A DNA stretch of 64,000 nucleotides from Eisenbergiella porci (GTDB taxonomy: Bacteria; Bacillota; Clostridia; Lachnospirales; Lachnospiraceae), in assembly GCF_009696275.1 (NCBI RefSeq), contig NZ_VUMI01000012.1, forward strand, positions 1 to 64,000. Direction: 5' to 3'. The notes under the pieces are model-generated. The model was not told where the DNA came from. It saw only the letters and a program-made list of their open reading frames with translations, and did not search any database. The position numbers were made by a program, and so were the translations under genes. This document shows, piece after piece, positions 991 to 22,214 of the stretch. Numbering within the stretch: position 1 is the first letter of the stretch; every line of letters starts with the position of its first letter.

Positions 991-1016
991 TTGTGCCACA
1001 GCTTGTGGCACAATTA
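988..1016. repeat. Perfect hairpin at the end of the nuclease gene
   Basis: A perfect 13-bp inverted repeat (TAATTGTGCCACA) with a 3-nt loop begins on the stop codon. There is no downstream T-run, so it is an mRNA 3'-end structure or a remnant of an insertion site rather than a classical intrinsic terminator. Confidence 0.6.
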
Positions 1017-1030
1017 AATCCGGTTTATGT

Positions 1031-1100
1031 AGAACATCACTGCCAACAATAAGACGCTTAAACTCTGAAAGTTCATGCGTCTTATTGTTGGTAATGTTCT
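1031..1100. repeat. 70-bp inverted repeat
   Basis: The arms AGAACAT and CCAACAATAAGACGC pair with GCGTCTTATTGTTGG and ATGTTCT, giving 22 paired bases interrupted by a small internal loop and closed by about 18 nt. No coding sequence spans it. The size and symmetry suit a small non-autonomous hairpin element or a long transcript-end hairpin. Confidence 0.55.
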
Positions 1101-1512
1101 ATAATCAACAAATCATTTTTGAGAGTTGCTGCAGATATTTCAAAAATTTAGTATTTATGATACACTCTAAAAAATATGATGCGAAATGATTTATGGGTAA
1201 AAAAGCCAATATTCTACTTGAACAAGAAAGATAATGCTTTCCCCAAGGAGAGATTATACTTGCGGGACATCATTATTACCCACTCAACACATTGCGAGGT
1301 TTGTGTGAAATTGTATCGAAAATAAACATATTTTGGCTGAATTAACTCGTTGTGTTACTTTCATAATCAAACAATAAGAGGGATTTCTTGTTAGTGAGGA
1401 ATTACCAGAAGGGTTTTGAGTATGTGGAATATTGCTATTAACAAAACCTGTCATATACTCATGGAGATTATGAAAACGGTAAAAACTTTATAGAAGCAAG
1501 GAGGAGTGTGAA
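1101..1512. other. Intergenic AT-rich stretch, no gene recognised
   Basis: About 410 bp with short interrupted reading frames only. One begins MGKKANILLEQER and stops within 14 codons. The stretch ends in a good ribosome site (AAGGAGG) for the gene at 1513. Probably eroded coding DNA; no family can be named. Confidence 0.4.
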
Positions 1513-2876: not shown

Positions 2877-2929
2877 GCCGCATATCACTGCCCCTCTCTC
2901 CTCAGAAGGCCCCTCTGATATGCAGCAGG
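2874..2929. repeat. Imperfect hairpin before the locus promoter
   Basis: CCTGCCGCATATCA at 2874-2887 pairs with TGATATGCAGCAGG at 2916-2929 with one mismatch, enclosing a C-rich 28-nt loop. It ends exactly where the direct-repeat promoter element begins. Confidence 0.45.
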
Positions 2930-2992
2930 TCAATTTTTGCCGGAGCAGGTCAAGAATATCACATTGTTGATCTGTTCCGGCCGTTTTATACT
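2926..2992 (+). promoter_or_regulatory. Promoter with two CAGGTCAA half-sites
   Basis: A -35 TTGTTG (2964-2969), 17-bp spacer and -10 TATACT (2987-2992) precede the hydrolase gene at 3058. CAGGTCAA occurs at 2926 and again at 2946, a 20-bp period, with the second copy 10 bp upstream of the -35. The same arrangement with the same spacing occurs at 10670-10736. The layout is that of an AraC-type activator site, presumably for the YesN-like regulator encoded at 14467. Confidence 0.65.
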
Positions 2993-3057
2993 TTACTAAA
3001 GGCTTAAAATGGCCAAAAATCCAATCAGCCACAAAAAACAGAGGAGAAAAAATAAAA

Positions 3058-4593
3058 ATGTATCAATACGAAATGTTCGAATTAAGCCTCACCGGCGAAC
3101 CGCCCCAGGGCTCCCAGGCGCTGTTCACTTTCCAAACCGTATTCCATCTGGACGGCGAAGAAAAGACCGTAAAAGGCTTCTACGCAGGAAGCAATACTTA
3201 TAAAGTACGTTTCCTCCCCAAAAAAACCGGCCTGTATTCCTGGAAAACCGAAAGCAATATTCCCTTGGAAGGACCTGTGGCAGGGGAAGAAGAATGCCTG
3301 CCGGCAAGGACCGGACGACATGGTATGGTAAAGACAGAGGGCCTTCATTTTGTTTATGAAGACGGTACGAAATACCTGCCGTTCGGAACCACCATTTACG
3401 CCCTTGCCCACCAGAGCGAGGAGATAATTGAACAAACCATGCACACCCTGGAGCACGCCCCCTTTAATAAAGTGCGCCATTGCATTTTTCCGAAGCATTA
3501 CAGATACAATCACAATGAGCCGCAGTTTTTCCCTTTTGAAAAAAATGCGGAAGGGAAGTGGGATGTGCACCGCCCCTGCATGGACTACTGGGAGCATTTT
3601 GAAAAAATCCTGGTCCGACTGGGAGATATGGGAATAGAAACGGATTTGATTTTGTTCCATCCTTATGACCGTTGGGGCTTTTCCATAATGAGTATGGAAG
3701 AATGGAAAATTCACCTGGATTACCTGCTCCGGAGACTGTCCGCCTATCCCTTTATCTGGTGGAGCCTGGCAAATGAATATGATCTGATGTTCAACCGTAC
3801 GATGGAGGATTGGTATGAGATAGAGGAATTTGTCGCTGCCAATGACTGCTATGAGCATTTGCTGAGCAATCATAACTGTCTCCATTTTTACGATTTCACC
3901 CGCCCCAATGTGACGCATTGCTGCATTCAGACGGATGGTATGCATAAGGCGGCGGAATGGCAGGAGAGGTATCAAAAGCCGGTGGTTTTTGACGAGTGCT
4001 GTTATGAGGGCAACATCGATATGGCCTGGGGGAATATTTCCGCATTTGAGCTGGTGAACCGTTTCTGGCGCGGCTGCGTTCAGGGGGCCTTTGTGACCCA
4101 TGGGGAAACTTATGTTTCGGAGGACGAGGTGCTCTGGTGGGCGAGGGGCGGCCGTTTGAAGGGGCAGAGCGCGCAGCGGATTGCTTTCCTGAAGGATTTT
4201 CTGTACAGCCTGCCATCCTGCATAAGTCCCTGGAAGGAGCCTTTTGTGATGGGGCCGGATGATAGGAACATTACGGCCACAGTTTTTGAGAAACCGGAGG
4301 AAGCATATGAACGGTTCCGGGCTTTGGTAAATACAGAGGAACGGGAGCTGTCCCAGGCAAAGGACGCATGCTATTATGGCCATTGCGGGGATCAGGTCTA
4401 CATAAAATATTTTGCGAGGCAGTGTTGCGCTATGTGTTTCCTTACCCTGCCGGAGGATAAAAAATACGAGGTTGAGATCATCGATGCATGGGAAATGACA
4501 AGGACGACTGCGCTGGAGGAGGCCTGCGGAAGGGTCGAAGTCAGGCTGCCCGGCAAAGAAGGGATTGCCGTGATTGCAAAACAGCTGCAATAA
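3058..4593 (+). CDS. GH-A clan glycoside hydrolase, DUF5060/DUF4038/DUF5605 type
   Basis: A 511-aa protein without signal peptide, so probably cytoplasmic. Residues 1-70 form a DUF5060-like beta domain, about 90-400 a TIM-barrel, and the remainder a DUF5605-like beta domain. The barrel shows the two clan GH-A glutamates: the acid/base in LANEYD (E240) and the nucleophile in VVFDECCYEG (E313). Relatives with DUF4038 include apiosidase-type GH140 enzymes, so a plant side-chain sugar such as apiose is a reasonable guess, but the substrate cannot be read from the sequence. The ATG follows GAGGAG. It is first in the locus and has its own promoter with the repeat element shared with the transporter operon. 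Confidence 0.8.
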   Translation: MYQYEMFELSLTGEPPQGSQALFTFQTVFHLDGEEKTVKGFYAGSNTYKVRFLPKKTGLYSWKTESNIPLEGPVAGEEECLPARTGRHGMVKTEGLHFVYEDGTKYLPFGTTIYALAHQSEEIIEQTMHTLEHAPFNKVRHCIFPKHYRYNHNEPQFFPFEKNAEGKWDVHRPCMDYWEHFEKILVRLGDMGIETDLILFHPYDRWGFSIMSMEEWKIHLDYLLRRLSAYPFIWWSLANEYDLMFNRTMEDWYEIEEFVAANDCYEHLLSNHNCLHFYDFTRPNVTHCCIQTDGMHKAAEWQERYQKPVVFDECCYEGNIDMAWGNISAFELVNRFWRGCVQGAFVTHGETYVSEDEVLWWARGGRLKGQSAQRIAFLKDFLYSLPSCISPWKEPFVMGPDDRNITATVFEKPEEAYERFRALVNTEERELSQAKDACYYGHCGDQVYIKYFARQCCAMCFLTLPEDKKYEVEIIDAWEMTRTTALEEACGRVEVRLPGKEGIAVIAKQLQ

Positions 4594-4637
4594 TTAATTA
4601 AACAGCTGCAGTAATTAATTAAACAGCTGCAATAATT
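4579..4637. repeat. 21-bp tandem repeat over the stop codon
   Basis: The unit AAACAGCTGCAATAATTAATT recurs at 4579, 4600 and 4621 (2.8 copies, one base difference). The first copy contains the last codons and TAA of the hydrolase gene, so the 3' end of the gene has been locally duplicated. Confidence 0.85.
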
Positions 4638-4662
4638 GTGAACGTACCGGACGTTACGTATC

Positions 4663-4703
4663 TTGAACGCACAATCGGGTTCCTGTATACTGGACTATAC
4701 AGG
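4663..4703 (+). promoter_or_regulatory. Promoter and palindromic operator of the kinase gene
   Basis: -35 TTGAAC (4663-4668), 17-bp spacer, -10 TATACT (4686-4691). The -10 is embedded in a perfect dyad CCTGTATA-N6-TATACAGG (4682-4703), which would let a bound repressor block the start site. The CAGGTCAA element is absent here. Confidence 0.6.
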
Positions 4704-4723
4704 GTAAAAAACGGAAACAGGCA

Positions 4724-4840
4724 GGTCTGCGCATTTACTGCGCAGACCGTGGAAAAACGCTGCGCTTCAGGCATCCGGCCCACAGCGCAGCGTTTAATTG
4801 GCCGGATGCGGTAACGGTTCGGCCCCGTCTGAACCGTTAC
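4724..4840 (+). ncRNA. Structured 5' leader with pseudoknot topology
   Basis: The roughly 200-nt leader of the kinase gene contains four perfect stems. These are 10 bp at 4724-4733/4739-4748; 12 bp at 4755-4766/4784-4795; 10 bp at 4771-4780/4800-4809; and 10 bp at 4811-4820/4831-4840. The second and third stems interleave, so they form either an H-type pseudoknot or two mutually exclusive hairpins. No T-run follows any stem, so control would act on translation or RNA stability. I do not recognise a known riboswitch class. Confidence 0.5.
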
Positions 4841-4901
4841 AAAAAGACGCTCCGTCCGGCTTCCCGGAGGGGGAAAAAGCTTCTGATATGGGGGAAGGGG
4901 C

Positions 4902-6644
4902 ATGAAAAAGCAGGGTATGGTGAGTGTTTTTAAAAAGCTGTACATTCTTTTTGTAATCATCATAGTAATTATCTATGTGAGTACAATCATAATTTTCCTG
5001 AAATATGCGAAACAGCAGAGGAATGTGGAAATAGGCGGGATGCAGAGCGCCGTCGTCCATAATGTTTCGGCGCTGGAGCAGCAGCTGGAAATTATTTATA
5101 ATCTGGAACGCAATCTGGTCAGCGACGGAAGGATTTCGTCCCTGGTATATGACACTTCCCTGAACGGGTATGAAAGGTCCCAGCTGATGTTGGCGCTGCT
5201 GGTGAATATGCAGGGCTTTCAGTCGCTGAATAATATCATTGAGGATATCACCATTATTTTTCCCAAACAGGAGATGGAGCTGAGCGCGGTGGAGGGGCAT
5301 GGCAGTAAGGAATATGTGCCCATACCCAGGAACGGGGATAATACGGCCCGCAGCCTGGTATATTGCGACGGGAAGGCGCAGATGGAGCTGCTGTACCCTC
5401 TGACCTATTCCATAGAGGAGGATTACGTCCCTGATTTCGGCGTGAGCATTACGCTTTCGGAGGATTATCTGCAGGAGCTTCTGGAGCTGTTTGGCAGCGG
5501 AGAACAGGCGGGCGCGTTTTTTGTGCTGGATGGCGGGGAAGTGCTTGGCCAGCAGCCTGTGGAGGGGGAAGCGCAGGCGCAGCTGATGGACTGCTGGTAC
5601 CGGGCATGGGAGAAGCAGGGCGGAGGAGAGAGTTTTCTCGGTAAGGGAAGGTGCCTGGGGACAAGCAATCTGTTTATGTCAGAAAGCATTCCCGGCTACG
5701 GGATTACCGTGGTTGCCTACCGCAGCGGCAGAGGGATAGGCAGCTCGGCAATGGTGGCTTTGCTTATGATGGGAGTTGTGCTTTTGGTCATCAGCATACT
5801 GTTTTTTGAAATCCTCTATCAGACCAACACCGCCGTGAATAAGCCGCTGAAAAAGGTGGTGCAGGCGTTTGGGCAGGTGCAGGAGGGCAACCTGGAAATC
5901 CGGATTTTCCATAAGCCCCAGGATGAGTTTCAATACATATATTCGTCCTTCAACCGAATGGTGGAACGCATCCAGGAGCTGATTGAAAACGTAAAGGAGC
6001 AGGGCAGGCTTTTACAGAATGCGGAGCTGATGCAGCTGCAGTCCCAGATCAACCCACACTTTTTGTATAACAGCTTCTATCTGATCCGGATTATGGCTAA
6101 AAATGAGTCCTATGATCAGATTATACAGTTCGTCACCTCCCTGGCAAAGTACTACCGTTTCCTGAACAAGGAGGTGGAGCAGAATATCCTCCTAAGCCGC
6201 GAGGTGGAGCATATGGAGAATTATATCGACATCCAGCAGATGCGGTTCGGGGATAAAATCACGGTGCATAAAGGGCAGCTGCCGGAAAGCGCGGCCGGTT
6301 TCCTTGTGCCGAAGCTGATACTGCAGCCTGTCATTGAAAATGCCTATAATTATGGCATGTCGGATATTTTAAAGGACGGCCGGATCGCCATCTCTTATTC
6401 TCATAAGGAGCCTTACCTTTGTATTGTCATTGAGGATAATGGGAACGGCGGAAGCAGCGAAAATATTGAAAGAATGCGGGAATACATCCAGGATTATCAG
6501 GGTCGGGCAGCCGGACATGCGCTTTCCAATATAGAACGCAGGCTGAAGCTGGCTTACGGGGAAACAAGCGGCATCCTGCTGGAACAAAGTGAGCTGGGAG
6601 GCTTGAAGGTGATCCTGCGGATTGACATGAGGGTAACGCTGTAA
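4902..6644 (+). CDS. YesM-family sensor histidine kinase
   Basis: A 580-aa membrane kinase. A membrane segment near residues 13-35 and a second near 275-300 bracket an extracellular sensor of about 240 residues. A HAMP linker (about 305-360) and His_kinase domain follow. The phosphoacceptor is H386 in QSQINPHFLYN, and the ATPase domain shows ENAYNYG and EDNGNGG. This is the YesM class that pairs with YesN/AraC response regulators to sense extracellular sugars. The likely partner is encoded at 14467, about 8 kb downstream, beyond the transporter genes. The ATG follows GGGGAAGGGG. The long structured leader suggests its synthesis is itself controlled. Confidence 0.9.
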   Translation: MKKQGMVSVFKKLYILFVIIIVIIYVSTIIIFLKYAKQQRNVEIGGMQSAVVHNVSALEQQLEIIYNLERNLVSDGRISSLVYDTSLNGYERSQLMLALLVNMQGFQSLNNIIEDITIIFPKQEMELSAVEGHGSKEYVPIPRNGDNTARSLVYCDGKAQMELLYPLTYSIEEDYVPDFGVSITLSEDYLQELLELFGSGEQAGAFFVLDGGEVLGQQPVEGEAQAQLMDCWYRAWEKQGGGESFLGKGRCLGTSNLFMSESIPGYGITVVAYRSGRGIGSSAMVALLMMGVVLLVISILFFEILYQTNTAVNKPLKKVVQAFGQVQEGNLEIRIFHKPQDEFQYIYSSFNRMVERIQELIENVKEQGRLLQNAELMQLQSQINPHFLYNSFYLIRIMAKNESYDQIIQFVTSLAKYYRFLNKEVEQNILLSREVEHMENYIDIQQMRFGDKITVHKGQLPESAAGFLVPKLILQPVIENAYNYGMSDILKDGRIAISYSHKEPYLCIVIEDNGNGGSSENIERMREYIQDYQGRAAGHALSNIERRLKLAYGETSGILLEQSELGGLKVILRIDMRVTL

Positions 6645-6707
6645 GCCGTAGGCTGCTTTATACTTTTTTGAAAGGCTGGAATGGCCGCAGAAGGAGGAGG
6701 TAAAATT

Positions 6708-9062
6708 ATGTGGAACGAAGCATTATGGCTGGGAGTGCCAAGGGCTGAGATCGAGGAAAAGAAAATATACCAGGGGGATATGAACGGGCGGTTCGCTTAC
6801 TACCGCCTGGATTTCATGCTGGAGCAACGGGTGGAGCTGAAGGCGGATATTTCCGCCAATTCCCGCTACCGCTTGTGGGTAAACGGACAGCCGGTGCTGT
6901 CCGGTCCCTGCCGCGGCGATCAGTTCAGGCACTATTATGAAACGGTGGAGTTGGGGGATTATCTGCGGATGGGGAAAAACGTGCTTGCCGTGCAGGTGCT
7001 TTTGTGCGACAGCATGTATGTAAAAGAAGGACCAGGGGACAACCGGGCGCCGTTAAACAGCGTGGCGACCCTGCCGGCGGGGCACAGGCTCGCCGTGGAG
7101 GGCGTGCTTAAAGGTGAGGAAGGTAATCCGTTGGGGGAGGTGACAACGGGAAAAGCCCCCTGGAAGGTATGGCTGGACAATACGTTTTTCCTTACAAAGG
7201 AACCGGTGGTGAATGGGAATATGGGCGCGCTGACGGAAAGGATTGATTTCAATGCGACGCCGGGCGGCTGGAGACTGCCGGATTTTGACGACGGCGGCTG
7301 GCGGGCCGGCGATGTGCTGGAGCCGGTAAAATGCGGGTTTGAGATGATGTTCGGTATTCTCAAGACCTTTATGATGGAGGAGCGTCCCATCCCGCTGCTG
7401 TATGAGCGTCCGGCCGTCCTTGAAAAGGAGCTGGGAGAAAGCGTTATGAGGAAAGCAGCCTACGTGACGGTGCGGCCAGGGGAACGCAGGACGCTTCTGT
7501 TTGACGGGGATGGGCTTTTCAACGCCTTTTTCCGGTATCAAATCGAAGGCGGCGCAGGGGCGGAGATTTCTTTTACCTATTTTGAAAAGTTCACGAAGGG
7601 CATTGATCAGGTAAAAAGGGATGATTATATCAATGGGGAAATCGGGCAGAACGGACAGCGGGATACCATCGTGCTAGATGGCGGCAGCCTGCTTTATGAG
7701 CCTTTCTGGTACCGGACCATGCGCTTTTTAAAGATTGAAATTCAGGCGGCGGGGGAGGAAGTGCGTTTTTACAGGCCTGCGCTTTTAAAGACCGGTTATC
7801 CTTTAAATCCCGGCTCCTATATCAAATCGGACGCTCCCTGGGTGGAGAAGGTGTATGACATGTGCGTGCGCACCCTGCAGGGCTGCATGATGGAAACCTA
7901 TATGGACTGCCCTTTCTGGGAACAGATGCAGTACCCTATGGATACCAGGCTGCAGGCGCTGTTTACCTATGTGTGCAGCGCGGATACGAAGCTGGCGGAG
8001 AAGGCCCTCCGGGATTTCCATGATTCCATGCTTCCCATGGGCCTGATTCAGGGCAGGGCGCCCAGCAACCCGAAGCAGATTATATCCACCTTTTCTTTGT
8101 ACTATATTTTCATGCTGCTGGAGTATTACAGGCGTACGGGAGATACGGATATACTGAAGCGTTACCGGGCGGATGTGGACAGCATCCTGGAATATTATGA
8201 CAGGCATCTCGGGCCGCAGGGACTGGTGGAAAATCTGGGCTTCTGGGATTTTGTGGACTGGCAGGAAAGCTGGCATGATACCATGGGACGTCCCGCGGCG
8301 GTACGAAAAGGCCCTTCCACCATTATTAACCTGATGTATGGACTGGCCCTGCTTGACGGGGCCGAAATCAATGAGGCCACCGGCAGGGCCGGCCTTGCGC
8401 AGGAGTACAGGGAACGGCAGAAAAACATCGTGGTTAAGATCCAGAGCCTGTGCTGGGATGCAGGGCGGGGAATGTTCCGGGAAGGCCCCTCCTGTCAGGA
8501 ATTTTCCCAGCATGCCCAGAGCTGGGCGGTGTTAAACGGCATGCTTTCCGGGGAGGATGCGCGCAGGGTGATGCGCAGGACCTTTGAGGAAAAGGATGTG
8601 CTGCGCTGTTATTTTTCCACCTGCTATGAGCTGTTCCGCGCCTGTGAAAAGGCGGGCTGCTATGAGCTCACCGCCCGGCAGATGGACTGGTGGATTAAGC
8701 TGCTGGAGGAACATTGCACCACCTGCCCGGAAACACCCTCCAATTCCAGAAGCGAGTGCCATGCTTGGAGCGCGCTGCCCATGTATGAGCTGATCAGCGT
8801 CATGGGAGGCATCCGCAGGGAAGCGGGCAGTCCGGCGCGGGTGGAGGTCTGTCCCCATCTGGACTATGTTCCCAACCTGGAGGGCGGCATGCTCACCGAA
8901 TATGGGCTGGTTACCTTCCGCTATTATCCGAAGGATGGCGGCATGCAGTATGAGCTGACGCTGCCGGAGGGAATGGAAGGAAGCTTCCGGGGAGCAAACG
9001 GCGGCAGCACTGTGCTGAGGGCCGGTAAAAATGAGATCTGGGAGCCTGTGAAAAAGGCCTGA
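6708..9062 (+). CDS. Family 78 alpha-L-rhamnosidase-like glycoside hydrolase
   Basis: A 784-aa intracellular enzyme (no signal peptide). It has an N-terminal beta-sandwich (about 1-300) with the SRYRLWVNGQ ligand-domain motif, an (alpha/alpha)6 barrel, and a C-terminal beta domain. The barrel opens with DCPFWEQMQYPMDTR, the GH78 counterpart of DCPxRxE...GD. GH78 enzymes hydrolyse terminal alpha-L-rhamnose from plant glycosides and pectic side chains. ATG 6708 is chosen over the upstream in-frame ATG at 6681 because GGAGGAGG precedes it and the family N-terminus begins here. The gene is 60 nt after the kinase stop. A TATACT box at 6659 with flanks resembling those at 2987 may give it some independent expression, but no clear -35 is present. 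Confidence 0.85.
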   Translation: MWNEALWLGVPRAEIEEKKIYQGDMNGRFAYYRLDFMLEQRVELKADISANSRYRLWVNGQPVLSGPCRGDQFRHYYETVELGDYLRMGKNVLAVQVLLCDSMYVKEGPGDNRAPLNSVATLPAGHRLAVEGVLKGEEGNPLGEVTTGKAPWKVWLDNTFFLTKEPVVNGNMGALTERIDFNATPGGWRLPDFDDGGWRAGDVLEPVKCGFEMMFGILKTFMMEERPIPLLYERPAVLEKELGESVMRKAAYVTVRPGERRTLLFDGDGLFNAFFRYQIEGGAGAEISFTYFEKFTKGIDQVKRDDYINGEIGQNGQRDTIVLDGGSLLYEPFWYRTMRFLKIEIQAAGEEVRFYRPALLKTGYPLNPGSYIKSDAPWVEKVYDMCVRTLQGCMMETYMDCPFWEQMQYPMDTRLQALFTYVCSADTKLAEKALRDFHDSMLPMGLIQGRAPSNPKQIISTFSLYYIFMLLEYYRRTGDTDILKRYRADVDSILEYYDRHLGPQGLVENLGFWDFVDWQESWHDTMGRPAAVRKGPSTIINLMYGLALLDGAEINEATGRAGLAQEYRERQKNIVVKIQSLCWDAGRGMFREGPSCQEFSQHAQSWAVLNGMLSGEDARRVMRRTFEEKDVLRCYFSTCYELFRACEKAGCYELTARQMDWWIKLLEEHCTTCPETPSNSRSECHAWSALPMYELISVMGGIRREAGSPARVEVCPHLDYVPNLEGGMLTEYGLVTFRYYPKDGGMQYELTLPEGMEGSFRGANGGSTVLRAGKNEIWEPVKKA

Positions 9063-9139
9063 AAAACAAGGTGATGGATATAACAAATAGTAAAATATCA
9101 GCCGGGGCAAAGCTGTCCCCGGCGGCGTGGAGGTTATTT

Positions 9140-10585
9140 ATGGAACATACGGATGTGGTAATTATCGGTGCGGGAGGCGCGGGCATGATGGCCGCGCTGA
9201 CGCTGGCAAAGGCCGGCAGGAGCTGTGTTGTGCTGGAGAAGGGAAAGCATTTGTCCGTAAGCAATGCGGCCAGGGCGGGCGGCCCTTCCCTGGCAGATAC
9301 TCTTTTGCAGGAGGAGGAAAACTGCGCCGTTTCAGCAGAGATGTTGTTTAGGCATATGTATGGATTTTCCCGGGGCACCGTGGACGGCGGCCTGCTGTAC
9401 CGGTGTATCAGAAACGGAAGGAAGGTTGAGGCGCTGCTAAGGGAAAGCGGCATTCAACTGAGGCTGACGGAGGATTTATACAGTGTTGGCTTCAGGGCCA
9501 GGCATTTTTTTGAAACGCCTGCGCCGCAGCGGTGGGAGCTGCTTGCAAGGAAGCTTGCGGAATACGGCGGCAGAGTGATCCTGAATGCCTGCGCCGGGGA
9601 GCTTTTGACGGAAAATGGCAGGATATGCGGCGTCCTGGCCGTTGACGGACAAAGCGGGGAACAGACGGCGTATTACGGAAAGGCGGTCATCATCGCCAGC
9701 GGCGGCTATCTGGGAAATGAAGAGATGCTAAAGCAGCATTTCGGGGATATTACCGTAGGCCCGCTGGGCAGCCGGCTCAGCGATGGGGCGGGGATCGCCA
9801 TGGCGCTGAAGGCCGGAGGCATGGAGGATCGCAGCTGGGGAATCTGCGCCGGGGAGTTCGGCGGCTATCACAGCAGGATGAAGGGACGCTTTCCCGGGAA
9901 TATGCGCTGGGCCATGACCGGCGGTCTGCTGGTGGACCGGGAGGGCCGCCGTTTTATGGATGAACAGCTGCTGGCGGATCAGCCGCTTTCCGTGGGAGGG
10001 GAAGCGACCCTGCGCGCCGGAAGCTATTATGCGGTGCTGGACGAAGCTTTTTATCAGGGCATACGTTCTGCCAGGTCGGTATACGACTTTTATGGCCGTC
10101 CGGAGGAATGGAAGACTGGAAAGTCCGCCCTTGACAGGGGACCCTGGCCCTTCCCGGAGGATCTGGAAAGGGATATCAGTGAGGGATGGGCTTTTTGCTG
10201 CGGCAGCATTGAGGAAGCGGCGGCGCATTTTTCTCTTCCTTTTCTGGAAGAAACGGTTACGCGCTACAATGCCATGTGCGAAGCCGGGCAGGATACGGAA
10301 TTCGGGAAAAACAGCTGGCTGCTGAAGCCGGTGGCAAAGGCGCCCTTTTATGTATTTGCCTACGAACCCAGCGCCTGGTGCACCATAGGCGGCGTGAAGA
10401 CGGACGCCTTCTGCAGGGTACTTGACAAGAAGCAGAAGCCAATTTCAGGGCTTTATGCGGCTGGTGTGGATAATGGAAGCTGTTACTGCGCTCCGTACTA
10501 TGATACGGAGGGCGCATGTCTGGGGCTGGCCTTCACCAGCGGGATCACCGCGGCGGAGCATATTTTGGGTAACTGGTCCGCCTGA
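9140..10585 (+). CDS. FAD-dependent oxidoreductase, fumarate-reductase flavoprotein-like
   Basis: A 481-aa flavoprotein. Residues 5-33 form the FAD-binding Rossmann start (DVVIIGAGGAGMMAALTLAKAG), with an E at the end of the second strand. The C-terminal IGGVKTDAFCRVLD...GLYAAGVDNG segment is typical of the FAD_binding_2 family. There is no FMN-binding or cytochrome domain, no lipobox and no signal peptide. Family members reduce activated C=C bonds (fumarate, urocanate, hydroxycinnamates) or dehydrogenate ketosteroids. Beside a rhamnosidase and an esterase, reduction of a plant aglycone or enoate is plausible but unproven. ATG 9140 has GGAGG at 7 nt and starts one residue stretch before the Rossmann strand. 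An in-frame GTG/ATG at 9071/9074 lacks a usable ribosome site. Confidence 0.8.
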   Translation: MEHTDVVIIGAGGAGMMAALTLAKAGRSCVVLEKGKHLSVSNAARAGGPSLADTLLQEEENCAVSAEMLFRHMYGFSRGTVDGGLLYRCIRNGRKVEALLRESGIQLRLTEDLYSVGFRARHFFETPAPQRWELLARKLAEYGGRVILNACAGELLTENGRICGVLAVDGQSGEQTAYYGKAVIIASGGYLGNEEMLKQHFGDITVGPLGSRLSDGAGIAMALKAGGMEDRSWGICAGEFGGYHSRMKGRFPGNMRWAMTGGLLVDREGRRFMDEQLLADQPLSVGGEATLRAGSYYAVLDEAFYQGIRSARSVYDFYGRPEEWKTGKSALDRGPWPFPEDLERDISEGWAFCCGSIEEAAAHFSLPFLEETVTRYNAMCEAGQDTEFGKNSWLLKPVAKAPFYVFAYEPSAWCTIGGVKTDAFCRVLDKKQKPISGLYAAGVDNGSCYCAPYYDTEGACLGLAFTSGITAAEHILGNWSA

Positions 10586-10669
10586 TTGGTCCGCCATATT
10601 ATGAATGGCATGGCTGAACAGTAAACATTTTGCAGGCGGCAGTTCGGGTAATGGGACGCTGTTTGGGAA

Positions 10670-10736
10670 CAGGTCAATTTTTGAACCGGGATATCAAGAA
10701 AGTTGCATTGTTGGATTCCGTTTTCCTTTTTATACT
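10670..10736 (+). promoter_or_regulatory. Promoter of the sugar transporter operon with activator half-sites
   Basis: -35 TTGTTG (10708-10713), 17-bp spacer, -10 TATACT (10731-10736). CAGGTCAATTTTTG starts at 10670, exactly 61 bp upstream of the -10, as at 2926/2987. A second half-site ending TCAAGAA lies 20 bp further on (10690). It drives the binding-protein gene at 10810. Confidence 0.65.
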
Positions 10737-10809
10737 GGCCTTAGATGAAAAACACAGCCGGGAAGGCAACGGACGGCTGGAGGAAAACAAAACTCAAGGA
10801 GGAAAACAC

Positions 10810-12495
10810 ATGAAGAAGAAAATTGCGTTATTGCTGGCGGCGGCAATGACCGTAAGCCTGATGGCAGGCTGCGGAGGGGATTCCGGCAGTGCACAGACAG
10901 CGGGAAACAGCGAAGCGGCCGGCGCTGTCGCCGAGGAAGAGGTGGATCCCAGATTCAAATATGAGGAACCGGTTACCCTGACCTCTTATTTTGAAATCTC
11001 ACCGGCTTTGGGTGAGTTCAATAAGGAAGACATGCTTAACAGCGTTTATTACACCAGGATGACCGAAGAAACCAACATTTCCATCGACTGGCTTTGGTAT
11101 GCGGCAAACACGCCGGATGATTCCCAGCAGAAGAAGAGCGTGGCAATTGCCTCCGGTGAAATCCCGGATTTCATGATTGTCAACAGCTCCCAGCTTTCCC
11201 TGCTTGCCAAGAGCGACCTGATTAACCGGAACATCGGTGAGGTGTTTAAAAAATATGCATCCGATGAGCTGATGGCATGGACGACCGGGGAAGGAGATGC
11301 CGCGCTGGAGGCCGCAACCGATAAGGGAGAAATCATTGCGATTCCGCTGGTGGATTCCTCCATTGATAAAGCCCCCATGCTGTGGATCAGAAGAGACTGG
11401 ATTAAGAAGCTGGGCCTGGAGATGCCCAAAACCCTGGATGAACTGTACAATGTCATGGTTGCCTTCCGGGATCAGGATCCGGACGGAAACGGGAAAGACG
11501 ATACCATCGGCATGGTATTCCACAATAACTTCCTCAGCGCCGGACTGGGCGACGGCGTGGGCGTTTTCAACGGCTTCGGCGCTTATCCCACCGCCTGGAT
11601 TGAAGACGGGAACGGCGGTCTGGTATATGGATCCGTGAAGGAGGAAAATAAGGATGCGTTAAATTTCCTTGCAAAAATGTATCAGGAAGGGCTGATTGAA
11701 CAGGATTTCTCCTCCAATGACGAGGTAAAGGCGTCCGAAGCGGCGGCTTCCGGACGGGCGGGCATCCAGTACGGCCTGATGTGGAACGCCAACTGGCCCC
11801 TGAATTCCACAGTCCAGAACGACATAGAAGCCGACTGGGTAGCCCTTCCCATTCCCACGGCTGTGGACGGGGATGCAAAGCCCCAGATTTCCCTCGCCAT
11901 TACAGGCTATGTTGTGGTAAATAAGAAATGTGAGCATCCGGAGGCAGTGGTGAGAATGCTGAACTTCTGGGTTGACAAATACGGATATTCCGGAGAAGAA
12001 TATAATGATTATCTGGTGAAGGATGCCAACGACGTCCTGAACTTCCCTCTCCACTGGGTTATGCTGAAGACCTGGTTCCCCTTAAAGAATCTGACAATCC
12101 ACAACAATATTGTGGCGGCGCTTGAGAGCGGTGACAGCTCCTCCCTGAATGCCGAGGAGCTGGTAAGCTATAATGACATCCAGAATTACCTCTCGGGCGA
12201 TATCGTGACCAGCTACGGCGGAATGAAGACCTTCGGCAATGACATGTCGGCTTACGATACCATGAACGAATATTATGAGAAGGATATGTTCATGTGGGAT
12301 AAGTTCACCACCGGCCCCACACCGACCATGGGTCAGAAGATGTCTACTGTGACGGATAAGGTGATGGAGTATTATACCAAGGTTATCATGGGCATTGAGA
12401 CTACCGACAATTTCGATGATTTTGTCAAGGAGCTGAATTCTCTGGGACTTGATAAAATAACGGAAGAAGTAAACGAGTGGTACGCAGGTAAGTAA
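10810..12495 (+). CDS. Extracellular sugar-binding lipoprotein (LplA-type)
   Basis: A 561-aa ABC transporter solute-binding protein. Residues 1-20 are a lipoprotein signal peptide with lipobox LMAGC. A Ser/Ala/Glu-rich linker and a family 1 solute-binding fold follow. It contains the calcium-site-like DPDGNGKDDTIGM loop and the LAITGYVVVNKKCEHPEAVVRMLN segment seen in large LplA/YtcQ-type oligosaccharide receptors. ATG 10810 follows AAGGAGG; the frame is open further upstream, but that stretch lacks a signal peptide. Two permease genes follow. No ATPase gene is present; such importers normally borrow a shared MsmX-like ATPase. The substrate is inferred to be a rhamnose-containing oligosaccharide or glycoside because of the neighbouring GH78. 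Confidence 0.9.
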   Translation: MKKKIALLLAAAMTVSLMAGCGGDSGSAQTAGNSEAAGAVAEEEVDPRFKYEEPVTLTSYFEISPALGEFNKEDMLNSVYYTRMTEETNISIDWLWYAANTPDDSQQKKSVAIASGEIPDFMIVNSSQLSLLAKSDLINRNIGEVFKKYASDELMAWTTGEGDAALEAATDKGEIIAIPLVDSSIDKAPMLWIRRDWIKKLGLEMPKTLDELYNVMVAFRDQDPDGNGKDDTIGMVFHNNFLSAGLGDGVGVFNGFGAYPTAWIEDGNGGLVYGSVKEENKDALNFLAKMYQEGLIEQDFSSNDEVKASEAAASGRAGIQYGLMWNANWPLNSTVQNDIEADWVALPIPTAVDGDAKPQISLAITGYVVVNKKCEHPEAVVRMLNFWVDKYGYSGEEYNDYLVKDANDVLNFPLHWVMLKTWFPLKNLTIHNNIVAALESGDSSSLNAEELVSYNDIQNYLSGDIVTSYGGMKTFGNDMSAYDTMNEYYEKDMFMWDKFTTGPTPTMGQKMSTVTDKVMEYYTKVIMGIETTDNFDDFVKELNSLGLDKITEEVNEWYAGK

Positions 12496-12500
12496 TCATG

Positions 12501-12574
12501 AAAGGGAGCTGGGCATAAAAGGCGTGAGAGTTCACACAACGTAAACTATTGCGAAAGGGCCTCGCTCCCTTTTT
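12501..12574 (+). terminator. Intercistronic stem after the binding-protein gene
   Basis: AAAGGGAGC at 12501 pairs with GCTCCCTTT at 12564, followed by T5. The loop is long (about 54 nt). Stems here are common between the binding-protein and permease genes and lower permease expression relative to the receptor. Confidence 0.5.
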
Positions 12575-12603
12575 GTGAAGTAAGCAGAGAGAAGGGGACT
12601 GGG

Positions 12604-13527
12604 ATGAAACAGAAAAAAAGCCTGGGCACAATTATGAAGAGGGAATGGCCGCTGCACGTAATGTTGCTGCCCGCAATCATTTTATTAATCATTTTTGCCT
12701 ATCTTCCTATGGTAGGTATTGTAATCGCCTTTCAGGACTTTGTCCCGTCGGGCGGGATGAAAGGGTTTTTCACCTCCGAATGGGTGGGACTTGATAATTT
12801 CAAATACATTTTCGGCATGAAGGATTTCCGGCAGGTGCTGGTGAATACGCTGGTCATCGCGCTTTTGAAAATCATTGCGGGCATTATCGTGCCACTGATT
12901 CTGGCGCTTTTGCTAAATGAAGTAAATAACAAGGTTTTCAAGAAAGCGACGCAGACGATCATCTATGTTCCGTATTTCCTTTCCTGGGTGGTCCTGGGCG
13001 GTATCCTGGTGGATATTCTTTCACCTACCAGCGGGATTGTAAATACCGCGATTACTGCGCTTGGCCATGAACCCGTCTTTTTCCTGGGAAGTCTGGAAAC
13101 CATCCGTGGAACCCTGGTGGCCTCCGATGTATGGAAAGGCTGCGGCTATAATATGGTCATCTTCCTGGCGGCGCTGACGGCCATTGACCAGAGCCAGTAT
13201 GAGGCGGCTAAGGTAGACGGCGCAGGCTATTTTAAACAGATGCTTTATATTACGCTGCCCGGCATCCTGCCGCAGATCATCCTGGTGACGGTCCTGGGCA
13301 TGGGCAATATCTTAAACGCAGGCTTTGACCAGGTATTTAACCTGTACAGCCCCATCGTTTATCAGAAGGCCGATATCCTGGACACCTATGTGTACCGCCT
13401 GGGTATGCTGAATCTGCAGTACAGCGTTTCCACCGCAGTGGGGCTGTTTAAATCAGTGATTTCCTTTATCCTGATCGCCTCATCCTTCACCCTTGCAAAG
13501 AAAATTGCAAACTACAGAATTTTTTAG
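12604..13527 (+). CDS. Sugar ABC transporter permease (LplB-type)
   Basis: A 307-aa inner-membrane protein with six predicted membrane segments. The permease coupling loop reads EAAKVDGAGYFKQMLYITLPG (about residues 200-220), the EAA motif that docks to the ATPase. It matches the LplB/YtcP-like first permease of oligosaccharide importers. The short basic N-terminus (MKQKKSLGTIMKREWPLH) is usual. The gene sits between the binding-protein gene and the second permease, 9 nt before the latter, so the two are co-translated as the membrane channel. Confidence 0.92.
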   Translation: MKQKKSLGTIMKREWPLHVMLLPAIILLIIFAYLPMVGIVIAFQDFVPSGGMKGFFTSEWVGLDNFKYIFGMKDFRQVLVNTLVIALLKIIAGIIVPLILALLLNEVNNKVFKKATQTIIYVPYFLSWVVLGGILVDILSPTSGIVNTAITALGHEPVFFLGSLETIRGTLVASDVWKGCGYNMVIFLAALTAIDQSQYEAAKVDGAGYFKQMLYITLPGILPQIILVTVLGMGNILNAGFDQVFNLYSPIVYQKADILDTYVYRLGMLNLQYSVSTAVGLFKSVISFILIASSFTLAKKIANYRIF

Positions 13528-13536
13528 GAGGCCGTT

Positions 13537-14421
13537 ATGAAAATAAAATCATCTCCTGCAAGAAAGGCATTTCTGGTAGTCAACTATTTTTTCCTGACGC
13601 TGGTCATGTGTATCTCCCTGTTTCCGCTGGTGCATGTGTTCGCCCTTTCCTTAAGCTCCAACTCCGCGGCGCAGGCGGGCTGGGTAACCATCCTCCCGGT
13701 GGATTTCACCCTGGATTCCTATCAATATATCCTGGCAAAACCGGAATTTTTCCAATCTTTCGGCGTGTCGGTGGTCAGAGTGGTTCTGGGGACCCTGCTC
13801 AGCATAGGGCTCACAATCCTGTGCGCTTATGCCATGGCTCAGCCGGATGAAAGATTCCATGCGAGAAAATATTATGTCTGGGCGTTCCTGGTGACCATGG
13901 TATTCTCCGGCGGGCTGATCCCTCTGTTTATCGTAGTGAAATCCGTGGGAATCTACAACAGTATCTGGGCGCTGATACTGCCCGGCGCGGTGCAGACCTT
14001 CAATATCATACTGATGCTGAACTTTTTCAGGGGCCTTCCCTATGCGCTGACGGAATCCGCGCTGATTGACGGGGCAAACCACTTCCAGATCATGACGAAA
14101 ATTATCGTGCCGGTATCCAAGCCCTCTCTGGCGACCGTGGGTCTGTTCACCATGGTAAATCACTGGAATTCCTGGTTTGACGGCATGATTTACATCAGCG
14201 ATACCGCCAAGTATCCGCTGCAGACCTACCTGCGCAACGTCATCCAGTCGGTGGATATCGCCAGCATCGACCTGACCAGCGTGGGCGCCATGACAAATGT
14301 GTCACAGAAAACCGTGACGGCGGCGCAGATTTTCGTGGCGATTATCCCCATCCTTCTTGTTTATCCGCTGCTCCAGAAGTACTTCATTACCGGTATGACG
14401 CTGGGAAGCGTGAAGGAGTAG
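13537..14421 (+). CDS. Sugar ABC transporter permease (LplC-type)
   Basis: A 294-aa permease with six membrane segments. Its coupling loop reads ESALIDGANHFQIMTKIIVP (about residues 171-190). The C-terminus LQKYFITGMTLGSVKE is characteristic of the second, LplC/YtcP-type subunit of these importers. GGAGG lies just upstream of the ATG. It pairs with the preceding permease; an external shared ATPase must energise the transporter because none is encoded nearby. Confidence 0.93.
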   Translation: MKIKSSPARKAFLVVNYFFLTLVMCISLFPLVHVFALSLSSNSAAQAGWVTILPVDFTLDSYQYILAKPEFFQSFGVSVVRVVLGTLLSIGLTILCAYAMAQPDERFHARKYYVWAFLVTMVFSGGLIPLFIVVKSVGIYNSIWALILPGAVQTFNIILMLNFFRGLPYALTESALIDGANHFQIMTKIIVPVSKPSLATVGLFTMVNHWNSWFDGMIYISDTAKYPLQTYLRNVIQSVDIASIDLTSVGAMTNVSQKTVTAAQIFVAIIPILLVYPLLQKYFITGMTLGSVKE

Positions 14422-14466
14422 CAGCGGGCGGTACTGGCCCAAATGTGGCGGGAGTGAGAAGAGACT

Positions 14467-16101
14467 ATGTACAGTGTTTTGATTGTTGATGATGAAAAAA
14501 TGATCCGGGATGACGTATACGGCCTGCTTTCCATGGAGGAATCCCTGGAGCTTGATCTGACGACGGCGGCCAGCGGGGTAGAGGCGCAGGCCATCCTGGA
14601 AAAAAGGAAGATAGATATCGTGATTATGGATATCAACATGCCGCAGATGTCAGGTCTGGAGCTGTACGATATCGTCAGGGAAAGATGGCCTTTCTGTAAG
14701 GTCATCTTTCTCACGGGCTATTCTGATTTTGACTATGTGTATAAGGTCCATAAGCATGCAAAGTATGTGCTGAAGGCGGAGGAGGATGAAAAGATACTGG
14801 AGGCTCTGCGGGAGTCTGTGGAAGAAATCGAGAACAGCCTCCTGCTGGAACGCCTGACCGATCTGCAGCGGGAACAGCAGAAGAAACCCCTGCTCCATGA
14901 AAGAAGCATGTTTTTACGGGAGCTTTTTGAAGGATACAGGGGCCTGTCCCAGTTTACCGGGGAGCTGTCGGTACAGCTTGGGATCGATCTGGATCCGGAA
15001 AAAGAAGTGTATTACCTCCTCCTCAGACATGAAGCCTGGTACTGTGAGAATTACCAGGAGCAGCAGAATGCCACCCAGGACTGTTATCAGCTGCTGGAAC
15101 GGTATTTCCTGGATTTCATGCGGGGCGCCTTTTTTGAATACAACAAGAATTACATCGTACTTCTTCTCCAGCCTGAAAAGCTGCTGCACGAGGAAACTAT
15201 TGTAAAAATGCTGGCCGGCGCGGGGGAGCTGTTCCAGAAAGCGCTGAAAAAGAACCTGGGCAGGACGGTATCCATCCTGGTGGGGGAACGGCCGGTCACT
15301 CTGTCACAGCTATTGCAGGAATTTATCGGCATATGCGACCGTATGATCTGGCTGTCCGGGGAAGAGCTGGTGCAGGAGGGGCTGCAGAAGGAGGCACTCG
15401 CCAAAGAAACCCTGCCGGAGCACAAAAAGCAGGAGCTGATGCAGATGCTGTGGCGGCTGGAATATTATCTGGAAGGGATGGAGGAAGAAAATTCCCTGAA
15501 TGTGCTGCGTCAGCTGCAGACAGAGCTGCAGAGCGTCAAGAGCATGCACGATCTGTTCGCGCTGGAGGCATACTGCACCATCAGCTCCCGGCTGATCGGC
15601 TGGATCAAGCGCCTGGAGCTGCACGAGGAGCTGGCCTTTCGGGTAGGCATCCTGAATTTGTACAATGTGTCAATGCATGCCAACTGGCAGGATGCCTTCG
15701 GCTACCTGCGGCATGTGGCGGAGAGCATTTTTTCCCTGAAAAACCAGAGTGTGGAAAAGCAGACCGAGGATGTGGTGAACCAGGTGAAAAAGTACATTGT
15801 GGAGCATCTGGACGGCGACACCTCCCTGTACAACCTGGCGGAGCAGGTACATTTCAGCCAGGAATATCTGCTGCGGATTTTTAAGAAAAAAGAAGGAATT
15901 ACCATCCTTCAGTATATCAATGACTTAAAGCTGGCTGCGGCCAAGCAGCTGCTCACGGATTCGGAGCTGCAGGTAAGAGAGATTGCGGACCGGCTGGGCT
16001 TTGCCAGCCAGGGCTATTTCGGACGTTTTTTCCGGAATAAGACGGGCCTGACGCCCAATGCCTACCGGGAAGCGGAAAAGAGGAAAATTGAAAATGGATA
16101 A
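14467..16101 (+). CDS. YesN-type response regulator, receiver plus AraC HTH
   Basis: A 544-aa cytoplasmic regulator. The receiver domain (1-120) has DDE at 8-10, phosphoacceptor D55 in VIMDINMP and a conserved lysine near 103. A 300-residue middle region of the YesN class follows, then a C-terminal AraC HTH pair (about 445-540) containing DSELQVREIADRLGFASQGYFGRFFR. It should receive phosphate from the YesM-like kinase encoded at 4902. The direct-repeat elements at 2926 and 10670 are its best candidate targets. Its stop codon overlaps the start of the esterase gene by 8 nt, implying translational coupling. Confidence 0.92.
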   Translation: MYSVLIVDDEKMIRDDVYGLLSMEESLELDLTTAASGVEAQAILEKRKIDIVIMDINMPQMSGLELYDIVRERWPFCKVIFLTGYSDFDYVYKVHKHAKYVLKAEEDEKILEALRESVEEIENSLLLERLTDLQREQQKKPLLHERSMFLRELFEGYRGLSQFTGELSVQLGIDLDPEKEVYYLLLRHEAWYCENYQEQQNATQDCYQLLERYFLDFMRGAFFEYNKNYIVLLLQPEKLLHEETIVKMLAGAGELFQKALKKNLGRTVSILVGERPVTLSQLLQEFIGICDRMIWLSGEELVQEGLQKEALAKETLPEHKKQELMQMLWRLEYYLEGMEEENSLNVLRQLQTELQSVKSMHDLFALEAYCTISSRLIGWIKRLELHEELAFRVGILNLYNVSMHANWQDAFGYLRHVAESIFSLKNQSVEKQTEDVVNQVKKYIVEHLDGDTSLYNLAEQVHFSQEYLLRIFKKKEGITILQYINDLKLAAAKQLLTDSELQVREIADRLGFASQGYFGRFFRNKTGLTPNAYREAEKRKIENG

Positions 16102-17584
16102 TTATGTGGTTAAGACAGCCTCCGGAAAGGTCAGGGGCTTTGCAGAGGATGGCCAAATCGCTTTTCTCGGCGTCCCCTATGCCATGCCTCCTGTGGGAGA
16201 GCTGCGGTTGAAACGGGCGGTTCCGGTAAAGCCCTGGGAGGGCGTGCTGGACGCTGTAGCATACGGCCCCAAAGCGGTGCAGTATAATGACGGCGTATGC
16301 GAAGGCTCAGAGGACTGCCTGACCTTAAACATCAGAAGACCCATGGAGGGAGAGAAACTTCCCGTACTGGTTTATATCCACGGCGGCGGCTACAACTCCG
16401 GCTGTGCCTCCGACGAGCTGTACCACGGCAAATCCTTCGTCAGCCACGGGATTGTATATGTCAGCTTCCAATACCGTCTGAACGTCTTCGGTTTTTATGA
16501 TTTTACCGGCTATCCCGGCTGTGAAGAGTTTGACAGCAACTGCGGCCTGTCGGACCATATTGTTGCCATGCAGTGGATTCATGAGAATATCCGGGCCTTC
16601 GGCGGCGATCCTGAAAGGGTGACGATAGCCGGAGAATCCGCCGGGGGAACGTCCATGATAGCGCTGATGGCCGCGCCGGGCGCAAAGGGCACCTTCGGGC
16701 AGGTAATCGCTTCCAGCGCCCTGCCGAACTGCTTTTTTACCAAGGAGACGGCAAAGAAGAACATTGACCTTTTTCTGGAAGGAATGGGCTGGACAGAAAA
16801 GAATCTGCCGAGACTGAAGGAAATCGAAGCCTATGAGGTACTAAAGGGAAACGAATATGTGGCAAAAGAGCATCAGTACCGCAATCCCGGCATTTTCCTG
16901 CCTACCGTTTCCATTGACGACCTTTTGCCTGAAAGGCCCCTGGAAGCGATAGCGCGGGGGAGCGCAGAAGGAATCCGGCTGATGATTGGATCCAACCTTC
17001 ATGAAGGAACCATGTTTGTCCGCCCGGAGCAGACGAATTTTCCCAATTCCTGGGATATGGTAAAGGAAATGTTTGTGAAGAACCACAATGAGGCGGGCTT
17101 TGCACGGATAAAGGATTATTATGAAAAAAGAAATGACGGCAGCGTCAATGGGGTGGAGATGGCTTTCATCAATTTTGCCACGGATTATGCGTTCCAGATG
17201 CCCGCGGTGAGGACGGCGCAGGCCCAGAAGGGCCATGGCCCGGTATGGATGTACCGTTATGAATTTATGTCGCAGATGGCGCGCAAGACAGGAATGCTTT
17301 GTTCCCACGCCATGGATCTGCCCTGCGATTTCAACTGCCTGGAATTCGGCTTCAGTGCGTTTGTATTTCAGGATGAACCGAAGGAAACGGTGGAGAAGAT
17401 CGTCAATGATGTGCATCTGCGCTGGGTGAACTTTATCAAGACAGGCGATCCCGGGCAGGACTGGCCGCAATATGCAGGCTATGACTCCCCGGTCATGATT
17501 TATGACCGGATGGGCGGGGCGCAGCAGCTTGACAGGACTGAGATGATGGACGTGTGGGGAGATATGAGGTTTTATGAGGATTAG
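16094..17584 (+). CDS. Type-B carboxylesterase
   Basis: A 496-aa alpha/beta hydrolase of the carboxylesterase/lipase type-B family. It shows the N-terminal GKVRGF...FLGVPYAMPPVGELR block, the oxyanion-hole HGGGYNSG, the nucleophile elbow GESAGG (S182) and a C-terminal SHAMDLPCDF histidine region. There is no signal peptide, so substrates must be imported. The start ATGGATAA overlaps the end of the regulator gene; an in-frame ATG at 16058 lies deep in the regulator and lacks the family N-terminus. In this locus the enzyme could remove acetyl or hydroxycinnamoyl groups from imported glycosides. That role is inferred from context alone. Confidence 0.88.
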   Translation: MDNYVVKTASGKVRGFAEDGQIAFLGVPYAMPPVGELRLKRAVPVKPWEGVLDAVAYGPKAVQYNDGVCEGSEDCLTLNIRRPMEGEKLPVLVYIHGGGYNSGCASDELYHGKSFVSHGIVYVSFQYRLNVFGFYDFTGYPGCEEFDSNCGLSDHIVAMQWIHENIRAFGGDPERVTIAGESAGGTSMIALMAAPGAKGTFGQVIASSALPNCFFTKETAKKNIDLFLEGMGWTEKNLPRLKEIEAYEVLKGNEYVAKEHQYRNPGIFLPTVSIDDLLPERPLEAIARGSAEGIRLMIGSNLHEGTMFVRPEQTNFPNSWDMVKEMFVKNHNEAGFARIKDYYEKRNDGSVNGVEMAFINFATDYAFQMPAVRTAQAQKGHGPVWMYRYEFMSQMARKTGMLCSHAMDLPCDFNCLEFGFSAFVFQDEPKETVEKIVNDVHLRWVNFIKTGDPGQDWPQYAGYDSPVMIYDRMGGAQQLDRTEMMDVWGDMRFYED

Positions 17585-22213: not shown

Positions 22214-22214
22214 A

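What the first reader, a model, noticed from the sequence alone, without database searches (positions are those of the whole stretch)
2926..17584. Plant-glycoside locus combining rhamnosidase, GH-A hydrolase, esterase and an enoate-type reductase
Seen: GH78, a DUF4038/DUF5605 hydrolase, a type-B carboxylesterase and an FAD_binding_2 reductase, all without signal peptides, together with a dedicated ABC importer and YesM/YesN. Known: GH78 removes rhamnose, related DUF4038 enzymes remove apiose, type-B esterases cleave acyl esters, and FAD_binding_2 reductases can reduce cinnamate-like double bonds. Inference: the cell imports a small acylated, rhamnosylated plant phenolic glycoside (phenylpropanoid or flavonoid) intact and dismantles it inside, using the aglycone double bond as an electron sink. 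An ordinary pectin fragment system would not need the reductase.
Basis: partly seen in the sequence, partly recalled or inferred. Interest (0 to 1): 0.72.

Follow-up and report, generated by a model that had tools for sequence, protein, structure and literature searches.

The report
Rhamnoside uptake operon with flavin reductase
A bacterium of the Lachnospiraceae type carries an operon that probably imports a small rhamnose-bearing plant compound and takes it apart inside the cell with a rhamnosidase, an esterase and a flavin enzyme; related genomes keep much of this set, but the actual substrate is untested.

Summary
In detail: 3058-17584 encodes an apiosidase-like hydrolase, a YesM-type kinase, a GH78 protein, an FAD_binding_2 flavoprotein, a sugar-type ABC importer, a YesN-type regulator and a type-B carboxylesterase; I see no signal peptide on the four enzymes. 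One relative (L001/L099) repeats kinase-GH78-flavoprotein-importer-regulator-esterase at 62-88% identity and adds a GH3 glycosidase and a second, unrelated ene-reductase-type enzyme (Oxidored_FMN). The esterase lies near a GH78 gene in 5 of 5 relatives found; two of these besides L001 also hold the Oxidored_FMN gene (one only its C-terminal half). This favours a small acylated rhamnoside with a reducible part over a pectin fragment. An enone, vinyl-phenol or ketone substrate is therefore likelier than a carboxylate enoate; a rhamnosylated steroid saponin remains a rival. Redox direction, electron donor and substrate are unknown. New variant of a known kind; interest moderate.

The parts
3058..4593 (+). 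apiosidase-like GH-A hydrolase (DUF5060 + Apiosidase + DUF5605), no signal peptide; not in the sister locus, but a 45% homologue lies with GH78 relatives in G190
   Evidence: Pfam; only PDB relative at E 1e-3 is 4n0r, both presumed catalytic Glu kept; G190 copy
4902..6644 (+). sensor histidine kinase (HAMP, His_kinase), YesM type
   Evidence: 62% to L001, 58% to L002
6681..9062 (+). GH78-type alpha-L-rhamnosidase, divergent; likely start ATG 6708
   Evidence: Bac_rhamnosid6H 83.7 bits, cut-off 24.5; 2okx RhaB E 4.7e-32 with D409, E414, D421, E684 aligned to its acidic residues
9071..10585 (+). FAD_binding_2 flavoprotein without signal peptide; likely start ATG 9140
   Evidence: best NCBIfam model VprA 205.5 bits, cut-off 600; residue tests
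10810..12495 (+). lipoprotein solute-binding protein of the importer
   Evidence: lipobox read; 77% to L001
12604..13527 (+). ABC permease A
   Evidence: BPD_transp_1; 87% to L001
13537..14421 (+). ABC permease B
   Evidence: BPD_transp_1; 88% to L001
14467..16101 (+). response regulator with AraC-type DNA-binding domain, YesN type
   Evidence: 72% to L001
16058..17584 (+). type-B carboxylesterase; likely start ATG 16094
   Evidence: COesterase 5.1e-94; para-nitrobenzyl esterase 1qe3 E 1.6e-78, catalytic Ser, Glu and His aligned

Best explanation
A catabolic operon for a small acylated, rhamnosylated plant glycoside. A YesM/YesN pair senses it, a lipoprotein-ABC importer brings it in, the GH78 enzyme removes rhamnose, the type-B esterase removes an acyl group, and the cytosolic flavoprotein carries out a redox step on the released aglycone or acyl part, most likely reduction of a C=C bond conjugated to a carbonyl or a para-phenol (enone or vinyl-phenol chemistry) rather than of a carboxylate enoate. 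Shown: gene content, synteny, aligned catalytic residues of the hydrolases, replacement of fumarate-reductase substrate-site residues. Inferred: substrate class (a flavonoid or phenylpropanoid glycoside is my first guess), order of steps, direction of the redox step, electron donor.
For: Sister locus L001/L099: kinase-GH78-flavoprotein-binding protein-two permeases-regulator-GH3-esterase-Oxidored_FMN enzyme. Esterase within 10 kb of a GH78 gene in 5 of 5 relatives found. The Oxidored_FMN enzyme (80-85% identical) is in three of these loci (L099, L070 and, as a C-terminal half only, L065) and also in GH78-GH1-ROK clusters L115 and L117; Fcr, the flavanone-cleaving reductase, is described as FAD-dependent oxidoreductase plus alpha/beta barrel (PMC11868195, passages), the same architecture class. 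RhaA, RhaB and RhaD homologues follow it in L070. The flavoprotein best matches VprA among NCBIfam models and has a Tyr-x3-Gly that aligns with that of a 3-oxosteroid 1-dehydrogenase (role in KstD1: PMC5348764, passages).
Against: Flavoprotein homologues at 55-57% in G471 and G483 have no GH78 or type-B esterase homologue nearby. L002 keeps GH78, kinase and flavoprotein, but neither esterase nor importer homologue is in the 14.7 kb fetched (its far upstream contig was not seen), and G409's best esterase matches are 33% (nearly full length) and 40% (partial) on other contigs. The VprA cut-off is not reached. The window genome lacks the Oxidored_FMN enzyme (best 29%), and its GH3 matches (34-54% over partial stretches for the best ones) are on other contigs. 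The R381 position of Fcc3 may be kept (R256 in some alignments). No biochemical or expression data.
Confidence: 0.5

Rival explanations
1. Rhamnosylated steroid or triterpenoid saponin (or cardenolide): GH78 and GH3 strip sugars, and the flavoprotein works on the 3-keto steroid nucleus like KstD, with the Oxidored_FMN enzyme as a BaiCD-like partner in the sister locus.
For: A KstD-type Tyr/Gly pair aligns; the L099 Oxidored_FMN enzyme has BaiCD and bilirubin reductase among its best NCBIfam matches. Rhamnose in saponins is recalled.
Against: BaiCD score 383.1 against cut-off 825; ketosteroid-dehydrogenase NCBIfam models score at most 109.8 bits, below VprA; the same Oxidored_FMN enzyme sits in GH1-ROK-GH78 clusters, which suit phenolic glucosides equally.
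Confidence: 0.15
2. Pectin (RG-I/RG-II) or other wall oligosaccharide system; the flavoprotein is incidental or acts on something unrelated.
For: Apiosidase-like hydrolase next door; in G190 two GH78 relatives (47-49%) lie with an apiosidase-like gene (45%) in a cluster holding a third, classical-type GH78 homologue.
Against: None of the ORFs I scanned or read in the esterase-bearing loci looked like a pectinase or unsaturated uronidase (not a full annotation); esterase and the Oxidored_FMN gene recur with GH78; apiosidase-like gene absent from L001/L099.
Confidence: 0.2
3. The flavoprotein is a detoxifying or general redox enzyme that was captured next to the rhamnoside operon by chance.
For: It has no GH78 or type-B esterase neighbour in G471 and G483, and 34-50% homologues in G309, G382 and G310 lie in fetched stretches without homologues of the other window genes.
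Against: It sits between GH78 and the importer in two genomes, at 71% identity, as conserved as GH78 (74%) and the regulator (72%); a third genome keeps it with GH78 and kinase.
Confidence: 0.15

Closest known systems
VprA vinyl phenol reductase (Lactiplantibacillus plantarum)
   Same: Best NCBIfam match over nearly the full length (26-498), FAD_binding_2
   Different: 205.5 bits against cut-off 600; vprA is controlled by a LysR-type regulator (PMC10295242, passages), here a YesMN operon with a rhamnosidase; the VprA sequence itself was not available to me
Urocanate reductase / Fcc3 fumarate reductase flavin domain
   Same: Best solved-structure matches by sequence
   Different: Residues at H365, R402 and H504 replaced; no room for a heme or FMN-binding domain in the 480-aa protein
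3-Ketosteroid dehydrogenase (KstD)
   Same: Y454/G458 align with the Tyr/Gly of 7p18 that matches Tyr487/Gly491 of KstD1 by spacing
   Different: Only the C-terminal part aligned there; Tyr119 and Tyr318 not examined; lower NCBIfam scores than VprA
Flavonoid catabolism of gut bacteria (rhamnosidase, glucosidase, FLR, Fcr, Phy)
   Same: Rhamnosidase plus flavin-reductase logic; Fcr-like architecture class in the sister locus
   Different: In the passages seen (PMC11868195, PMC11170127), FLR-Fcr-Phy genes are grouped in C. butyricum, which has no rhamnosidase, and rhamnosidase genes are spread over the C. decagia genome; no operon with importer, esterase and an FAD_binding_2 enzyme is described there
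RhaB alpha-L-rhamnosidase, PDB 2okx
   Same: GH78 catalytic core and acidic residues
   Different: Pfam detects only the six-hairpin domain in the window protein at E 1e-3 (besides a sub-cut-off MGH1-like match)

Membership tests
GH78 alpha-L-rhamnosidase | Bac_rhamnosid6H catalytic domain above cut-off | tested here: met
   83.7 bits, cut-off 24.5; partial, profile 4-248 of 339
GH78 alpha-L-rhamnosidase | acidic active-site residues of RhaB | tested here: met
   D409, E414, D421, E684 aligned; that these are the RhaB active-site residues is recalled
GH78 alpha-L-rhamnosidase | accessory N, concanavalin-like and C domains of classical GH78 | tested here: inconclusive
   No other GH78 domain at E 1e-3, unlike L115 and L117, but phmmer aligns its N-terminal part weakly with RhaB; filed as GH78 on the catalytic domain
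VprA vinyl phenol reductase | NCBIfam equivalog cut-off of 600 bits | tested here: not met
   205.5 bits; homologues L097 222.4 and L002 193.2
Fumarate-type (Fcc3) enoate reductase | substrate-site residues H365, R402, H504, R544 (roles: PMC6242907, passages) | tested here: not met
   G238, A279 and W413 at H365, R402 and H504; R544 lies beyond the alignments. In the 14 aligned sequences, window included, none has His or Arg at these columns (the H365 column is a gap in six)
Fumarate-type (Fcc3) enoate reductase | proton-relay residues E378 and R381 | tested here: inconclusive
   E378 aligns with M255 or G253; R381 with A258 in some alignments and with the conserved R256 in others
3-Ketosteroid dehydrogenase | Tyr487 and Gly491 of KstD1 | tested here: met
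   Y454, G458 align with Y536, G540 of 7p18, equated with Tyr487/Gly491 by motif spacing; Tyr in 8 of 14 sequences, Phe in 6; Gly in 14 of 14
3-Ketosteroid dehydrogenase | Tyr119 and Tyr318 | not tested
   No alignment of these parts with a KstD was printed
GH140 apiosidase | close match to a characterised apiosidase | tested here: inconclusive
   Pfam Apiosidase 50.3 bits over cut-off 26.5, but the only solved relative at E 1e-3 is 4n0r, a putative hydrolase
Type-B carboxylesterase | COesterase domain and Ser-Glu-His triad | tested here: met
   triad positions recalled for 1qe3
YesMN-regulated sugar ABC operon | kinase, AraC-type response regulator, lipoprotein, two permeases | tested here: met
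   the YesM/YesN names are recalled

The most novel reading that the evidence does not exclude
A so far undescribed dedicated catabolic module of Lachnospiraceae that takes up acylated rhamnosides of plant phenolics (or saponins) whole and couples rhamnose release, deacylation and reduction of the aglycone inside one operon, with two unrelated ene-reductase-type flavoenzymes (FAD_binding_2 and Oxidored_FMN) used together or exchanged between genomes.
Probability: 0.35. Interest if true: 0.62.

Novelty: new variant of a known kind. Interest (0 to 1): 0.45.

Why it matters
If true, it ties deglycosylation, deacylation and reductive aglycone metabolism into one regulated unit and would give a genetic marker for bacteria that transform acylated plant rhamnosides; it also gives a defined set of genes with which to test whether reduction of a plant aglycone pays as an electron sink.

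Tried and rejected
Promoter and terminator scan gave no clear excess over shuffles (23 found against a mean of 17.8, sd 4.0; 20 against 18.3, sd 4.5), so operon limits rest on spacing and synteny. Rfam found only a T-box outside the region. VprA itself could not be fetched: its model is over the cut-off in 0 of 14 control genomes, and a plasmid search gave only distant hits, at most 29% in the 15 rows listed of 309 records. Literature: of ten searches, one on rhamnosidase, gene cluster, ene-reductase, esterase and gut returned one review, seen only as a listing; two searches returned no paper, and 37, 60 and 90 none that I used. These searches do not show that the module is unpublished. Five papers were read, all as passages only. 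I dropped the idea that the apiosidase-like gene belongs to the core set. I made no chance estimate for the esterase-GH78 link. Searches scored only the best two or three candidates per genome, so their counts are lower bounds.
Full report
Observation. The window lies in a 6.1 Mb assembly; that it is of the Lachnospiraceae type is inferred from its named relatives. The binding protein has no Pfam hit but a lipoprotein start. The four enzymes begin without a recognisable signal peptide (by eye).

Synteny. In L001 (uncultured Lachnospiraceae MAG, genome G408) the order is kinase (62%), GH78 (74%), flavoprotein (71%), binding protein (77%), permeases (87, 88%), regulator (72%), then a GH3 enzyme, then the esterase (63%), then a 648-aa Oxidored_FMN/Pyr_redox_2-type enzyme about 23 bases further (L099). 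No apiosidase-like homologue was found in L001 or L099. L002 (Roseburia MAG, genome G409) has GH78 (72%), kinase (58%) and flavoprotein (58%), but no importer or esterase homologue in the 14.7 kb fetched, which reach the contig end downstream; about 23 kb of the contig upstream were not seen. The genome's best esterase matches are 33% (nearly full length) and 40% (partial), on other contigs.

How far the flavoprotein travels with GH78. At 55% identity or more it was found in 5 genomes: the window's, G408, G409, G471 and G483. Searches were 13 genomes of the window's genus, own included (only the own has it; 10 others show short weak matches and 2 none), 397 genomes of the family (next best 50%), 77 of the genus of G408 (3 hits at E 1e-60, G408 itself included) and 62 of the genus of G409 (1 hit, G409 itself). 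GH78 is beside it in 3 of 5. In G471 (L098) and G483 (L097) none of my glycosidase or type-B esterase queries matched nearby; in G483 a PF00756 esterase gene lies next to it. More distant flavoprotein loci in G309, G382 and G310 show no homologue of the other window genes in the stretches fetched; four of those proteins begin with a Tat-like twin-arginine signal, read, unlike the window's.

The esterase is the better tracer. With E up to 1e-100 it is in 5 of 397 family genomes including the own, plus G408. In all 5 relatives a GH78 gene is near: adjacent in G147 (L065), about 4.2 kb in G195 (L068), 1.3 kb in G358 (L070), 9.9 kb in G408 (L001), and about 4.8 kb in G226 (L076), where the GH78 is of the classical multi-domain type and the esterase copy has an internal stop. 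The GH78 neighbours in L065, L068 and L070 are only about 30% like the window's. Looked at from GH78, I fetched 14 of the 17 best-scoring homologue loci (L062-L075; L062 and L063 overlap in one genome, and several contigs are short): 3 have the esterase, 2 the Oxidored_FMN enzyme, 2 (one genome, the same gene) the apiosidase-like gene and 0 the flavoprotein. So the full set is rare; pairs of its members recur.

A second reductase. The Oxidored_FMN enzyme of L099 is 83% identical in L070, where it precedes RhaD, RhaA and RhaB homologues (named by me from sequence; only the aldolase was Pfam-checked). In L065 only a C-terminal half (80%) was found, next to GH3. Best NCBIfam matches are mycofactocin OYE 2, bilirubin reductase and BaiCD, all under their cut-offs; best structures by sequence are NCR and 2,4-dienoyl-CoA reductase. 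It is widespread: of 29 places with 63% identity or more I looked at 22 (20 newly fetched, plus G358 and G147; the seven in G292, G025, G349, G132, G103, G320 and G089 were not fetched). In one of the 20, L128, my ORF script did not recover the gene. Among the other 19, GH78 is near in 2 (L115, L117) and a protein of 895-916 aa, with a sub-threshold GH106 match where scanned (L121), in 2 (L121, L123); all four have GH1 and ROK genes. Of the remaining 15, one (L119) has a 32% GH1 match and 14 match none of my GH78, GH106-like, GH1 or GH3 queries. So it is a general enzyme that appears to have been joined to rhamnoside loci more than once. The window genome lacks it (best 29%).

Chemistry of the flavoprotein. 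Its best curated model is VprA, far under the cut-off (205.5 of 600 bits). PMC6242907 (passages) lists H365, R402, H504 and R544 of Fcc3 for substrate binding and reduction, and E378, R381 and R402 for proton transfer. The window protein, numbered from ATG 9140, aligns G238 at H365, A279 at R402 and W413 at H504 (numbering checked). E378 falls on M255 or G253. R381 falls on A258 in some alignments and on R256, which is kept in the two nearest homologues, in others, so it is open. R544 lies beyond the alignments. In the 14-sequence alignment, window included, none has His or Arg at the H365, R402 and H504 columns, the first being a gap in six. Against 3-oxosteroid 1-dehydrogenase 7p18 its Y454 and G458 align with Y536 and G540 of the AYPGAG motif; by spacing this is the Tyr487/Gly491 pair that promotes keto-enol tautomerisation in KstD1 (PMC5348764, passages). 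Tyr454 is kept in the 8 nearer sequences and is Phe in the 6 farther ones; Gly458 is in all 14. I infer a substrate held by a keto or phenol oxygen rather than a carboxylate. This is sequence alignment at low identity, without a structure model.

Hydrolases. GH78 acidic residues and the esterase triad are in place, and so are the two presumed glutamates of the apiosidase-like protein against 4n0r; nothing suggests that they are inactive.

Reading. The simplest account is a YesMN-controlled importer for a small acylated rhamnoside whose released part undergoes a flavin-dependent redox step. Repeated pairing of GH78 and esterase, and in three loci of both with a second ene-reductase-type gene, makes a pectin-only role less likely but does not exclude it. 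Substrate class, redox direction and electron donor are inferred or open. C. decagia, a Lachnospiraceae species with 16 GH78 genes and flavonoid reductases (PMC11170127, passages), shows that the biology is realistic in this family.

Noticed in passing
L115, L117, L121, L123: Clusters of the 80-85% conserved Oxidored_FMN enzyme with GH1, ROK and either classical GH78 or an 895-916 aa protein with only a sub-threshold GH106 match (scanned in L121): possible glucoside/rhamnoside plus ene-reductase cassettes.
   Followed up: partly
L062, L063 (G190 contig 2): Two GH78 relatives (47-49%) and an apiosidase-like gene in one cluster with a third, classical-type GH78 homologue.
   Followed up: partly
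L047, L048, L049 (G382): Several FAD_binding_2 proteins with Tat-like signals in one genome, which had 64 first-look candidates.
   Followed up: no
L076 about 9297-10343 (G226): Esterase homologue with an internal stop, near a classical GH78 gene.
   Followed up: no
window 160-2253: DUF1016/YhcG nuclease-like gene and a pRiA4b ORF-3-like gene upstream of the locus, in lower-GC DNA.
   Followed up: no
window 20372-22378: A BlaR1-type M56 peptidase domain and a penicillin-binding transpeptidase domain in one protein.
   Followed up: no
window 29956-32039: T-box leader followed by a methionyl-tRNA-synthetase-like gene.
   Followed up: no
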